From positions 1 to 41,392 of the forward strand of contig WHTA01000052.1 of the NCBI GenBank assembly GCA_009379825.1: 41,392 nt of DNA. Direction: 5' to 3'. Each line of letters begins with the position of its first letter. Positions within the stretch are counted from its first letter, which is position 1. Below the pieces are notes generated by a model. The model saw only the letters and a list, made by a program, of their open reading frames with translations, was not told the DNA's origin and did not search any database. Shown one piece after another: positions 4,426-25,053 of this stretch. The position numbers and the translations under genes were made by a program. The stretch comes from Streptosporangiales bacterium. Its GTDB lineage: Bacteria; Actinomycetota; Actinomycetes; Streptosporangiales; WHST01.

Positions 4426-4521
4426 TTCGCGGCCTGCGTGACCGTGGCCTGCCGAGGCTCGCCATCATGGAAGCCCCAGGGCGTGCGACACCCGCAACGA
4501 GACGGAAGAGGCCAGCCGCCG

Positions 4522-6151
4522 ATGACCACGGAGAACGGCCGCGAGCGGAACCCGTGGCTCGTGCTCGTCGCCCTGTGTCTCGGCTTCTTCATGATCCTGC
4601 TCGACACGACGATCGTTAACGTCGTGCTGCCGGACATCATCGACAAGGTCGGCACGTCGCTGGACGAGGCCATGTGGGTGGTCAACGCGTACGTCCTCGT
4701 CTACGCGGTGCTGCTCATCACGGCCGGCCGGTTGGGTGACATCGCCGGGGCCGCGCACGATGTTCCTCGGCGGACTCGTCCTGTTCATACTCGCCTCGGC
4801 CGCCTGCGGCCTCGCGCGCAGCCCCGGCGAGTTGATCGCCGCCCGCGTAGTGCAGGGGCATCGGCGGCGCCGCGATCACACCGCAGACGCTGACCATCCT
4901 CACCACGATCTTCCCGCCGGACCGCCGCGGCGCCGCGTTCGGCACCTGGGGCGGTGTCGCGGGGGTGGCCACGGTGGCCGGGCCGACGCTTGGCGGCTAC
5001 CTGGTGACGACCTGGGACTGGCGGTGGATCTTCTTCGTCAACCTCCCGGTGGGCGTAGTCGCGATGGTGATGTCGCTGCTCGTGGTGCCCGACCTGCGTC
5101 CCGGACGCAAGCACCGGCTGGACCTGTTCGGCGTACTGCTCGCCTCTGCCGGCCTCACGGCCATCACCTTCGGCCTGCTCGAAGGCGAACGGTACGGGTG
5201 GGGCACGATCCGCGGGGTCGTCAGCATCCCGCTGGTGCTCGGCGTCGGCGCCGTGCTGCTCGTCGGGTTCCTCGTCTGGCAACGCTGCAGAAGAGCGAGC
5301 CACTGCTCCCCTTCGAGGTGTTCCGCGATCGCAACTTCACCATCACCAGCGTCGCCGCGGGCACGCTCACCTTCGGCTTGCTGGGGGTCTTCCTGCCGCT
5401 GACGCTGTACCTGCAGTCCGTGCTCGGCATGTCGGCACTCGCAGCCGGGCTCACCATCGCCCCGATGTCGCTCATGGCCATGGTGCTTGCCCCGTTCACC
5501 GGGCGGCTGGCCGACCGTATCGGCGGGAAGTACATCCTCATCGCCAGCTTCGTGCTGTTCGCCACGGGGATCGGTCTGGTGGTCGCGAGCACAGAACCCG
5601 ACCCCGATCGCTGGGACTTCCTCGCCGGCCTGATCATCGCGGGCTTCGGCATGGGCGGCATCTTCGCTCCGCTGCAGACGGTGGCCATGCGCAACATCCC
5701 GCCGCGTCTGGCCGGGGCCGCCGCGGGCGTACAGAACACCATCAGGCAGCTCGGCGGCGTGGTCGGCGGCGCCGCGGTCGGCGCCGTGCTGCAGAACCGG
5801 CTCGCGGACGCGATGCACGAGCAGGCGCAGGCGCGGGCCGACCAGCTCCCGCCCGGGACCCGCGCACGATTCGTCGCCGGCTTCGACGACGCGGGCGCCG
5901 GCGGGCTCGAGGTCGGCGGGCACGACAGCGGCAAGCTACCGATCCCCAAGGGGCTGCCGGAACCGTTGGCCGAGCAGCTCGGCCGGCTCGCGCACGCCGT
6001 CTACACGCACGGCTTCGTGGACGCCATGCACGTCACGTTGGCGCTGCCGATCGCCGTCATCGCCGTGTCCGCCGTGTTGTGCCTCGGCCTGCGCCGACGC
6101 CGCCGCGCGGCCGCCGCGGACACCGCCGAGGAACGGCCGGCGGCCCGCTGA
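4522..6151 (+). pseudogene. DHA2-type (14-TM) MFS drug transporter, three frameshifts
   Basis: The conceptual protein of about 540 residues is a QacA/EmrB-type proton-drug antiporter: LDTTIVNVVLPDI in TM1, WVVNAYVLVYAVLLITAGRLGDI around TM2, and GPTLGGYLVTTWDWRWIFFVN in the motif C region. The reading frame changes three times. An extra G at about 4746-4749 falls between GRLGDIAG and PRTMFLGG. An extra G at about 4854-4857 falls after ARVVQG. A missing C at about 5285 falls between FLVWQR and LQKSEPLL. Each change is one base in a G or C run, and protein homology is otherwise continuous to the TGA at 6151. This fits either sequencing error or a recently dead gene. The divergent MerR gene is its likely regulator. 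Confidence 0.85.
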
Positions 6152-6228
6152 CCTGGGCCTGCCGTGAGGCGGGGGCAAGATCAACAATTTTCCCGAGAGG
6201 GTTCCCAAGCGGAGACATGTTCCCTATG

Positions 6229-6267
6229 GTGATCACACAGAGCAATCAAGTATCACAGCCAGTGATA
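6229..6267 (+). promoter_or_regulatory. Inverted repeats upstream of the small peptide gene
   Basis: GTGATCAC, a perfect palindrome, lies at 6229-6236. TATCAC-N5-GTGATA, a perfect inverted repeat, lies at 6251-6267. They share the GTGAT half-site and lie 30-70 bp before the peptide start, where a promoter would be. They look like sites for a dimeric regulator that I cannot name. The surrounding 6180-6300 region is clearly less GC-rich than the genes. A confident -35/-10 pair was not found. Confidence 0.5.
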
Positions 6268-6295
6268 GTTGGTCTTACGTGTGAGAGGGGGAGCT

Positions 6296-6379
6296 ATGGG
6301 TCTGCTGTCCGGTTTGCTTGGCGCCGTAACTACGCTGTTGGGCTCGCTGGGTATCGAACTGCCACCGTTGCCTATGTAA
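6296..6379 (+). CDS. 27-residue hydrophobic peptide
   Basis: A short frame starts at ATG 6296, directly preceded by GAGAGGGGGAG, a strong ribosome binding site with about 4 bases of spacing, and stops at TAA 6377-6379. The product starts MGLLSGLLGAV and ends ELPPLPM. It is rich in Leu and Gly, has one acidic and no basic residue, and could form a short amphipathic or membrane helix followed by a proline-rich tail. It has its own leader with inverted repeats and its own terminator, so it looks like a real monocistronic unit and not chance. I do not recognise a family. A membrane-associated small protein, secreted peptide or leader peptide are all possible. Confidence 0.55.
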   Translation: MGLLSGLLGAVTTLLGSLGIELPPLPM

Positions 6380-6383
6380 ATGA

Positions 6384-6410
6384 CCACGTAGCTCTCGGGG
6401 GGTTACGTGG
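6384..6410 (+). repeat. Inverted repeat after the peptide stop
   Basis: CCACGTA at 6384-6390 pairs perfectly with TACGTGG at 6404-6410 across a 13-base G-rich loop. It begins 4 bases after the peptide stop codon and could be a 3' UTR hairpin protecting the short mRNA. The core TTACGTG also occurs at 6275-6281, just before the ribosome binding site. Confidence 0.45.
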
Positions 6411-6421
6411 CAACCTCACAC

Positions 6422-6470
6422 GGGGTCCGGTCGGGTGAAGTGAGGGCTCTCCCGACCGGGCCCCTTTCTT
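6422..6470 (+). terminator. Intrinsic terminator of the peptide unit
   Basis: A 14-bp stem (6422-6435 with 6451-6464) contains a single G-U pair and a 15-base loop, and is followed by TTTCTT. It is a classical rho-independent terminator on the plus strand. It lies 15 bp from the convergent ftsY stop and may also limit ftsY read-through. Confidence 0.85.
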
Positions 6471-6484
6471 GTGCCCCCTGCCGG

Positions 6485-7639
6485 TCAGTCCTCGGCGAGC
6501 AGGGCGTCGACGAACTCCTCCGCCACGAACGGCGCCAGGTCGTCGGGCCCCTCGCCCAGCCCCACCAGCTTCACCGGCACGCCTAGCTCCCGCTGCACCG
6601 CGATGACGATGCCGCCCTTCGCCGTACCGTCCAGCTTGGTCAGCACGAGACCGGTGACGTCCACCACCTCGGCGAACACCCGCGCCTGGGTGAGCCCGTT
6701 CTGACCGGTCGTCGCGTCGAGCACCAGCAGGACGTCGTCGACGGCTGCCTGCTTCTCCACGACGCGCTTCACCTTGCCGAGCTCGTCCATCAGGCCCTGC
6801 TTTGTATGGAGCCGGCCGGCGGTGTCCACGAGCACCGCGTCGACCTCGCGCTCGGCGCCGTCGCGTACCGCCTCGAACGCGACGCTCGCCGGGTCGGCAC
6901 CTTCGTCGCCGCGGACGGTCTCCGCCCCCACCCGGCGGCCCCAGGTCTCCAGCTGGTCGGCGGCCGCTGCCCTGAAGGTGTCCGCCGCACCCAGCAGCAC
7001 CTGCCGGCCGTCGGCGATCAGCACCCGGCCGAGCTTGCCGACCGTGGTCGTCTTGCCGGTGCCGTTCACGCCGACGACGAGCACCACCGCAGGCTTGCCG
7101 TCGTGGCGCACCGCATGCACGGTGCGGTCGAAGTCGCCCAGCTGGTACAGCAGCTCCTCGCGCACCAGCGCGCGCAGCTGGTCCGGCGTACGGGTGCCGA
7201 GCACCCGCACCCTGGTGCGCAGGTTGTCCACGATCTGCCGGGTCGCGGCCACGCCGACGTCCGCGGCGATGAGGTTCTCCTCGACCTCGTCCCAGGTGTC
7301 GTCGTCGAGGGTGTCGCGCGACAGCAGGGTCAGCAGGCCACGCCCAAGGGTGTTCTGCGAACGCGCGAGCCTGGCCCGCAGCCGCACCAGCCGGCCGGCT
7401 GCGAGCGCGGGCACCTCGACCTCTTCGGTGACCGGCTCCGCCGTGGCGGGTGCCGCGGCGTCGGCCGCCGGCTGCGCGGCGGTGTCCTCCTCGGCCTCCA
7501 CCGCGGTCGAGCCGGGCGCGAACGTACCCGACCGCCGGCGCGCACCGACGACGAGACCGACGACGACTACGAGCAGAGCGAGGACGCCGATCGCGATGAC
7601 GAGGGGAAGGTATTCAGCCACGGACACGGAGTCTTTCAT
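6485..7639 (-). CDS. ftsY: Signal recognition particle receptor FtsY
   Basis: 384 residues. SRP receptor GTPase that docks ribosome-SRP complexes at the membrane for co-translational insertion. An N-terminal hydrophobic segment (residues 10-32, LPLVIAIGVLALLVVVVGL) anchors the protein directly. A short acidic linker (about 45-75) is followed by the helical N domain and the NG GTPase: P-loop GVNGTGKTT near 190-198, DTFRAAA, DTAGR near 272-276, and TKLDGTAKGG near 330. The first ATG at 7639 lacks a good ribosome binding site, and a GTG five codons on is possible. It lies last in the smc-side block, as in many actinobacteria and in Bacillus smc-ftsY. Confidence 0.96.
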   Translation of the reverse strand: MKDSVSVAEYLPLVIAIGVLALLVVVVGLVVGARRRSGTFAPGSTAVEAEEDTAAQPAADAAAPATAEPVTEEVEVPALAAGRLVRLRARLARSQNTLGRGLLTLLSRDTLDDDTWDEVEENLIAADVGVAATRQIVDNLRTRVRVLGTRTPDQLRALVREELLYQLGDFDRTVHAVRHDGKPAVVLVVGVNGTGKTTTVGKLGRVLIADGRQVLLGAADTFRAAAADQLETWGRRVGAETVRGDEGADPASVAFEAVRDGAEREVDAVLVDTAGRLHTKQGLMDELGKVKRVVEKQAAVDDVLLVLDATTGQNGLTQARVFAEVVDVTGLVLTKLDGTAKGGIVIAVQRELGVPVKLVGLGEGPDDLAPFVAEEFVDALLAED

Positions 7640-24120: not shown

Positions 24121-25053
24121 CCTGAAGCTGTCCCAGCTCGGGATCTCGTACGGCTCACCGTCCACCGTGACGCCTGTCCCCTCGGCCACCCGGCCGACCA
24201 CCTGCCAGCCGTCCGGCACGTCACCATCGCCGAAGGTGGCGGCGAGCGCGTGGTCCTCGCCACCGGCCAGCACCCACTGCAGCGGGTCAGCGCCGCCGAG
24301 CGCCGCGGCGACCTGCTCGAACGGCGCCGGCACCTCGAACGCCGCCGACATCACGTCGATGGCGACGCCGCTGCCCGCGGCGATGTGCCCGAGGTCCTGC
24401 ACCAGGCCGTCGCTGACGTCGCACATGGCCGTCGCGCCGGCGTCCGCCGCCTGCGGGCCGGCCGCGTACGGCGGCGTCGGCCTGCGGTGTGCCTCCACCA
24501 GCACCCGCGGCGTGCGGAACCCACGGCTCAACACCGCGAGCCCGGCCGCCGACCAGCCCAACCGACCACGGACCGCGACGACGTCGCCCGGCCGCGCCCC
24601 GGCACGTGTCACCGGCTCGCGGCCGCCGAGATCGCCGAGCGCGGTCACGGTGAGGACCATCGGGTCGCTGCGGACGACGTCACCGCCGACCACCACCGCA
24701 CCCACCTCGGCGCACTCGTCACGCAGGCCCGCGGTCAGCTCGTCCGCCCACTCGGTCGGCAGGTCCGGTGACGCACCGAGCGCGACGAGCACGCTCGTCG
24801 CGTTGGCGCCCATCGCGGCGATGTCGGCCAGGCCGGCCGCCACGACCCGCCGGCCGATCTCGTGCGCGGTGGACCAGTCCCGCCGGAAATGCCGACCTTC
24901 GACGTACATGTCCGTCGTCACGACGACCCTGCCGTCGGGGGCGCGTACGACCGCGGCGTCGTCCCCCGGCCCCACCACGATGTCCGGCGCGTCGCCCAAC
25001 CCGGCGATCACCCGTGCGATGAATCCGAACTCACCGAGCTCTCCGATGGTGAT
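24118..25053 (-). CDS. thiL: Thiamine-monophosphate kinase, apparent ATC start
   Basis: About 311 residues. Phosphorylates thiamine monophosphate to the diphosphate cofactor. VVGPGDDAAVV, TTDMYVEGRHF, GLADIAAMGANA, GDVVRSD and CDVSDGLVQDLGHIA are the AIRS/ThiL family blocks. The first ATG/GTG/TTG in frame is GTG 25011, but the conserved N-terminal block GELGEFGFIAR lies upstream of it, and no canonical start precedes that block. A strong GGAGGAGG (25059-25066) sits 5 bases from ATC 25053, which would begin ITIGELGEF. Either ATC is the start, a base error has changed the start, or the protein is shortened. Confidence 0.88.
   Translation of the reverse strand: MTIGELGEFGFIARVIAGLGDAPDIVVGPGDDAAVVRAPDGRVVVTTDMYVEGRHFRRDWSTAHEIGRRVVAAGLADIAAMGANATSVLVALGASPDLPTEWADELTAGLRDECAEVGAVVVGGDVVRSDPMVLTVTALGDLGGREPVTRAGARPGDVVAVRGRLGWSAAGLAVLSRGFRTPRVLVEAHRRPTPPYAAGPQAADAGATAMCDVSDGLVQDLGHIAAGSGVAIDVMSAAFEVPAPFEQVAAALGGADPLQWVLAGGEDHALAATFGDGDVPDGWQVVGRVAEGTGVTVDGEPYEIPSWDSFR

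What the first reader, a model, noticed from the sequence alone, without database searches (positions are those of the whole stretch)
6180..6470. Self-contained unit for a 27-residue hydrophobic peptide
A strong ribosome binding site, a Leu/Gly-rich peptide without basic residues, two palindromic sites upstream, a 3' hairpin and a strong terminator all fit in under 300 bp. The layout looks like a regulated small-protein gene with no recognised family, the kind missed by annotation.
Basis: partly seen in the sequence, partly recalled or inferred. Interest (0 to 1): 0.62.

Follow-up and report, generated by a model that had tools for sequence, protein, structure and literature searches.

The report
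Conserved unannotated 27-residue membrane peptide gene
A short stretch of an actinobacterial genome carries a real, selectively conserved gene for a tiny greasy peptide, with its own promoter, RNA hairpin and stop signal; it belongs to no known family and its function is still unknown.

Summary
ORF 6296-6379 (+) encodes MGLLSGLLGAVTTLLGSLGIELPPLPM. A second species of the genus (G001) carries the same unit: over 24 substitutions the codon-position pattern is 8/1/15, with 5 conservative residue changes against 13.2 expected (0 of 20,000 randomisations). The -35 hexamer, the 17-nt spacing to a TANNNT -10, one of two palindromes, the 12-bp 3' hairpin (27/28 columns, against 12/27 third codon positions) and the terminator are also conserved; the palindrome GTGATCAC is not. 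No protein, RNA or structure library recognises it. In about 340 genomes of the order it is found only in this genus; a class sample gives one look-alike, in another genus, beside an ABC exporter. Best reading: a monocistronic gene for a membrane-inserting amphipathic mini-protein, whose mRNA has a separately constrained 3' hairpin, so a dual-function RNA is possible. An attenuator leader is unlikely (next gene is convergent); a type I toxin lacks any sign of an antisense partner; a cationic secreted peptide is disfavoured (no basic residues). The gene is demonstrated by comparison; membrane insertion and function are inferred.

The parts
6179..6201 (+). Partly conserved block upstream of the -35 (GATCAAC..TTTTC.CG.GAGG)
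   Evidence: 23/32 columns identical over 6171-6201 against G001, including GATCAAC 7/7; possible activator site or UP-like element, inferred
6202..6230 (+). Inferred promoter: -35 TTCCCA, 17-nt spacer, -10 TATGGT
   Evidence: -35 identical (6/6) and the 17-nt spacing exact in G001 (TTCCCA-17-TACATT), while the spacer itself is only 7/17 identical; not called by the E. coli-type scanner
6229..6236 (.). 8-bp palindrome GTGATCAC overlapping the -10; not conserved
   Evidence: Present but TTGACTAC in G001
6247..6271 (.). Conserved inverted repeat CAAGTATCAC-N5-GTGATAGTTG in the 5' UTR (operator or RNA hairpin)
   Evidence: Core ATCACANCCAGTGAT 14/15 identical; T-A to C-G and G-G to T-A changes in G001 lengthen the stem; one copy per genome at up to 1 mismatch
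6284..6293 (+). Ribosome-binding site AGAGGGGGAG
   Evidence: Sequence; G001 has AAAGGGGGG at the same place
6296..6379 (+). 27-codon gene, MGLLSGLLGAVTTLLGSLGIELPPLPM
   Evidence: 81% aa identity in G001; codon-position differences 8/1/15, 5 aa changes against 13.2 expected, 0/20000
6384..6410 (+). 3' UTR hairpin CCACGUAGCUCU-CGG-GGGGUUACGUGG (12 bp)
   Evidence: z -4.95; 27/28 columns identical in G001, the only change being one extra G in the loop run
6414..6419 (+). CCUCAC, may pair with GUGAGG (6440-6445) in the terminator loop (pseudoknot, tentative)
   Evidence: Inverted repeat I20; in G001 5 of the 6 pairs can form (read from the alignment)
6422..6471 (+). Rho-independent terminator (14-bp stem) and U-rich tail
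   Evidence: 37/43 identical, one C-G to U-A compensatory pair and one G-U to G-C change in G001; kept in G001 where no ftsY is adjacent on the contig

Best explanation
This is a stand-alone gene for a 27-residue membrane mini-protein. RNA polymerase starts at its own promoter (-35 TTCCCA, 17 nt, -10 TATGGT) about 60 nt before the ATG. The short mRNA passes an inverted repeat, which is a repressor site or an RNA hairpin, is translated from AGAGGGGGAG, and ends at its own terminator. Residues 2-19 form an amphipathic helix. Its conserved Leu/Val stripe (L3, L4, L7, L8, V11, L14, L15, L18) faces lipid or a protein partner; a Gly/Ala/Ser/Thr face allows close packing; the acidic, proline-rich tail ELPPLPM stays at the membrane surface. 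The likeliest role is to bind or tune a membrane protein or the membrane itself. The almost unchanged 3' hairpin is a second constrained element, for mRNA stability or base-pairing, so the transcript may be a dual-function RNA. Shown by comparison: coding selection, promoter spacing, inverted repeat, hairpin, terminator. Inferred: transcription, translation, membrane location, partner, regulation.
For: Coding selection on the frame. Regional footprints: -35 6/6, 5' inverted repeat 14/15, hairpin 27/28, terminator 37/43, while the promoter spacer is 7/17 and the palindrome-SD gap 5/26. Strong 3' folds in both species (z -4.5 and -4.7). Amphipathicity of residues 2-19: muH 0.256, shuffle P 0.0008, and P 0.0019 in G001. 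The residues shared by all four known sequences are mostly the Leu/Val stripe. No family or RNA library match. The upstream DHA2-type MFS gene is broken by three frameshifts in this genome while the unit is intact, so the peptide does not depend on that transporter.
Against: Only two sequences of the unit itself are available, from one genus. Hydrophobicity is moderate (best 19-residue Kyte-Doolittle mean 1.69) and there is no basic residue to set topology, so a stable transmembrane helix is not certain. No transcript, ribosome or protein data exist here. No partner or regulator was identified.
Confidence: 0.55

Rival explanations
1. Dual-function RNA: the 3' hairpin with its G-rich loop base-pairs with target mRNAs while the ORF makes the peptide, as in SgrS/SgrT or VcdRP.
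For: The hairpin is the best-conserved stretch of the unit (27/28 columns, against 12/27 third codon positions identical). Comparable design: VcdRP has a 29-aa peptide and a base-pairing segment that needs four consecutive cytosines (PMC8672173).
Against: A stable hairpin just before a terminator is also explained by mRNA protection. No targets were tested. The 6C sRNA, which could pair with a G-run, was not found in the own genome.
Confidence: 0.2
2. Type I toxin: a small hydrophobic membrane toxin whose mRNA is silenced by an antisense RNA.
For: Size, hydrophobicity and predicted helix match the published description (<60 aa, hydrophobic, helical membrane domain; PMC8309996). The mRNA is strongly folded, and in the window 5'-UTR GUGUGAG can pair with 3'-UTR CUCACAC.
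Against: No basic residues (most type I toxins have them at the C-terminus). No complementary second copy elsewhere in the genome. No promoter-like site on either strand at the scanner's threshold. Single copy. The 5'-3' pairing is not kept in the predicted G001 fold. Type I systems were reported only from Proteobacteria, Firmicutes and Tenericutes plus one cyanobacterium (PMC12390103).
Confidence: 0.1
3. Secreted amphipathic peptide (PSM-like or leaderless-bacteriocin-like) exported without a leader.
For: Short, starts MG with a Leu/Gly helix. In G001 an HlyD/ABC/MacB-type operon lies between the MFS gene and the unit. The look-alike in G356 lies upstream of an ABC exporter on the same strand.
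Against: Net negative with no basic residue, unlike cationic bacteriocins. The exporter genes of G001 are absent from the window (no hits). No immunity or modification gene recognised nearby.
Confidence: 0.1
4. Leader peptide of a transcription attenuator (ORF, hairpin, terminator in front of a regulated gene).
For: The order ORF - hairpin - terminator is the classical attenuator layout. In G356 an ABC exporter follows its look-alike.
Against: The gene beyond the terminator is ftsY on the opposite strand (6485-7639, -), so nothing lies downstream to attenuate. The amino-acid sequence, not only the codons, is conserved.
Confidence: 0.03
5. Chance ORF between a terminator and a promoter, with no gene product.
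For: Short ORFs are common in GC-rich DNA (one search lists 59 of at least 25 aa in 7 kb).
Against: 0/20000 randomised substitution sets keep the residues as well; promoter, repeat, hairpin and terminator are co-conserved.
Confidence: 0.02

Closest known systems
Small bacterial membrane proteins (AcrZ, KdpF, MgtS, SgrT type; from general knowledge)
   Same: Stand-alone or accessory genes for <50-aa hydrophobic helices, usually unannotated, with their own regulation
   Different: No sequence relation detected; no adjacent partner gene that is intact in both species of the genus
VcdRP / SgrS-SgrT dual-function RNAs (PMC8672173)
   Same: Short transcript with a peptide of similar length and a separately constrained RNA segment
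   Different: RNA targets not shown; hairpin loop G-rich rather than C-rich; other phylum
Membrane-associated type I toxins (DinQ, IbsC, Fst; PMC8309996)
   Same: Very short hydrophobic peptide, strongly folded mRNA
   Different: No antisense or complementary RNA found, no basic residues, single copy
Phenol-soluble modulins (PMC12607899)
   Same: About 20-27 residues, amphipathic helix, no signal peptide; similar hydrophobic N-terminal pattern recalled from memory only
   Different: No charged face, no Pmt-like exporter at the locus, other phylum; resemblance not tested by alignment
Short ORF of G356/G378 (other family of the same class; L122, L123)
   Same: MGLL-GLL--V--LLG-L core, SD, isolated ORF, strong terminator, coding constraint
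   Different: Cationic C-terminus (RIRIGLG/KVRIGLG), other flanking sequences, sits upstream of an ABC exporter; common descent not proven

Membership tests
Conserved protein-coding gene | Substitutions favour synonymous sites | tested here: met
   Codon positions 8/1/15, 5 aa changes against 13.2 +/- 1.7 expected, 0/20000
Conserved protein-coding gene | Ribosome-binding site and start codon kept | tested here: met
   AGAGGGGGAGCT-ATG and AAAGGGGGGTTC-ATG
Conserved protein-coding gene | Transcript and peptide detected | not testable with these tools
   No expression data
Type I toxin-antitoxin | <60 aa hydrophobic toxin | tested here: met
   27 aa, GRAVY 1.30
Type I toxin-antitoxin | Antisense or complementary RNA antitoxin | tested here: not met
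   No second or complementary match in the own genome; no promoter-like site in 6100-6700 on either strand; weak actinobacterial promoters could be missed
Type I toxin-antitoxin | Toxic on overexpression | not testable with these tools
   Needs an experiment
Attenuator leader peptide | Regulated gene downstream on the same strand | tested here: not met
   ftsY lies convergent, 6485-7639 minus
Dual-function RNA | RNA segment constrained apart from the ORF | tested here: met
   Hairpin 27/28 columns identical
Dual-function RNA | Base-pairs with trans targets | not tested
   Not attempted
Phenol-soluble modulins / leaderless bacteriocins | Amphipathic helix | tested here: met
   muH P 0.0008
Phenol-soluble modulins / leaderless bacteriocins | Dedicated exporter at or near the locus | tested here: inconclusive
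   HlyD/ABC/MacB genes in G001, not in the window; ABC exporter beside the G356 look-alike
6C sRNA and other Rfam RNAs | Covariance-model match | tested here: not met
   No gathering-level match; 6C absent from the genome

The most novel reading that the evidence does not exclude
The unit is an actinobacterial dual-function RNA of a kind not described before: one short transcript whose peptide acts in the membrane and whose 3' hairpin acts as a regulatory RNA, belonging to a scattered family that also includes the exporter-linked peptides of G356/G378.
Probability: 0.12. Interest if true: 0.65.

Novelty: new member of a known kind. Interest (0 to 1): 0.4.

Why it matters
Genes this short are dropped by annotation pipelines and are rarely backed by more than an ORF and a ribosome-binding site. 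Here one unit has comparative evidence for the peptide and, independently, for its promoter, a 5' inverted repeat, a 3' RNA hairpin and its terminator. That makes it a compact, cloneable test case for small-membrane-protein function in Actinobacteria, and a candidate for a peptide-plus-RNA regulator in a phylum where such regulators are poorly known.

Tried and rejected
Mobile unit: flanks looked unrelated in the first alignment, but the VWA/MerR/MFS genes precede the unit in both species and the G001 ftsY contig ends 169 nt after ftsY, so vertical inheritance is likelier. Phage or plasmid origin: no tblastn match in plasmids, one irrelevant match in phages. The 17-mer of the hairpin hit 3 viral contigs, about what chance gives for such a large collection, and the peptide profile found none. 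6C sRNA pairing: no 6C RNA in the genome. Weak Rfam hits (miRNA families on the terminator, sodF sRNA on the G356 terminator) are far below gathering scores. Profile hits in other genomes of the order at E 0.002-0.3 lie in larger open frames (70 aa to thousands), so they are background. Accessory of the upstream MFS: that gene is frameshifted here.

Full report
What is there. The window encodes MGLLSGLLGAVTTLLGSLGIELPPLPM at 6296-6379 on the + strand, behind AGAGGGGGAG and between an MFS transporter gene (ends 6151, +) and ftsY (6485-7639, -). The unit is distinctly poorer in G+C than its surroundings: 57%, and 51% in the promoter and 5' UTR, against 72% for the window. It occurs once in the genome.

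Is it a gene? A second species of the genus (G001) has the unit with 81% peptide identity. In 81 coding bases there are 24 substitutions at codon positions 1/2/3 = 8/1/15. Only 5 residues change (G-S, T-A, G-A, I-V, L-V), against 13.2 +/- 1.7 when the same substitutions are placed at random (0 of 20,000).

What else is under selection? A gap-corrected alignment gives identities of 6/6 for the -35 TTCCCA, 7/17 for the spacer (whose length of exactly 17 is kept), TANNNT at the -10 in both, 14/15 for the core of the inverted repeat at 6252-6266, 5/26 between repeat and SD, 57/81 for the ORF, 27/28 for the 3' hairpin and 37/43 for the terminator. The inverted repeat keeps its symmetry through changed pairs, and the terminator stem has one compensatory C-G to U-A pair. 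The hairpin is more conserved than the ORF's own bases, so the RNA is constrained for its own sake. With only two sequences, protection of the mRNA cannot be told from a trans-acting role.

Location and history. In G001 the same VWA, MerR and MFS genes precede the unit, with a PadR gene and an HlyD/ABC/MacB-type operon added. The G001 ftsY sits at the end of another contig. The contig ends share a 20-nt repeat, so conserved synteny is likely but not proven. In the window the MFS gene is split over three frameshifts relative to G001; neighbours such as VWA, FtsY and SMC are intact. The MFS gene therefore looks like a decaying pseudogene, and the unit persists without it.

Distribution. In about 340 genomes of the order, the profile finds only this genus; the other hits, at E up to 0.3, lie in larger open frames. 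A class sample of 394 genomes gives one short look-alike, MGLLGGLLGSVGALLGTLRIRIGLG in G356. In its sister species G378 the frame changes by 2 residues over 11 substitutions (2/1/8) and the terminator is identical. A pattern of SD plus MGLL-GLL--V matches only these two loci in 394 genomes, with no background hits; the pattern was made after seeing both, so this shows rarity and is not an independent test. The G356 ORF lies upstream of a 598-aa ABC exporter and divergent from a methyltransferase. Homology is plausible but unproven, because an 18-residue Leu/Gly helix could converge.

How it most likely works. Residues 2-19 give an amphipathic helix (muH 0.256, P 0.0008) with a Leu/Val stripe that is shared by all four peptides and a small-residue face that carries three of the five substitutions. 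With no basic residue and a short acidic, proline-rich tail, I infer a membrane-inserted mini-protein that acts on a membrane partner, made from an autonomous mRNA. I put about 0.55 on this, about 0.2 on a dual-function RNA as the main point, and about 0.1 each on a type I toxin and a secreted peptide.

Comparison with known kinds. Libraries find nothing: Pfam, where the best hit, DUF454, has E 0.49 and is far under its cut-off; NCBIfam; PHROGs; PADLOC; PDB; Rfam. Type I toxins share size and hydrophobicity, but the antisense partner was sought and not found, and in the paper consulted such systems are reported only from other phyla. The attenuator reading fails because nothing lies downstream on the same strand. 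VcdRP is the closest published design for a peptide plus an RNA function.

Limits. Two sequences of the unit, no expression data, one scan of the named genome collection (spent on FtsY), anonymous genome handles, and no structure model for so short a peptide. G002, the third genome of the genus, is 77% complete and also lacks a detected ftsY, so the unit's absence there says nothing.

Noticed in passing
window 4492-6091 (+): The DHA2-type MFS efflux gene upstream is read in four pieces in three frames relative to the intact 556-aa G001 protein (three frameshifts), while neighbouring long genes are intact: a likely recent pseudogene, or local assembly errors.
   Followed up: partly
L140 3379-6864 (G356) and L141 (G378): A short Leu/Gly peptide ORF sits between a divergent methyltransferase and a same-strand ABC exporter in two species of another family. 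The region 5' of it contains about 120 nearly invariant bases, and the terminator is identical.
   Followed up: partly
L003 about 1800-1820 and L120 about 2694-2713: Both G001 contigs, near the unit and after ftsY, share the 20-mer CGTTGATCACGTTAACCTCG close to their ends; probably a repeat that broke the assembly.
   Followed up: partly
window 6414-6445 (+): CCUCAC before the terminator can pair with GUGAGG in the terminator loop (5 of 6 pairs also in G001): a possible pseudoknot.
   Followed up: no
window 24319-24413 (-): The only tRNA called, tRNA-Ala(GGC), is 95 nt long with its anticodon at position 39; unusual for tRNA-Ala, so it may be a false call or carry an insertion.
   Followed up: no
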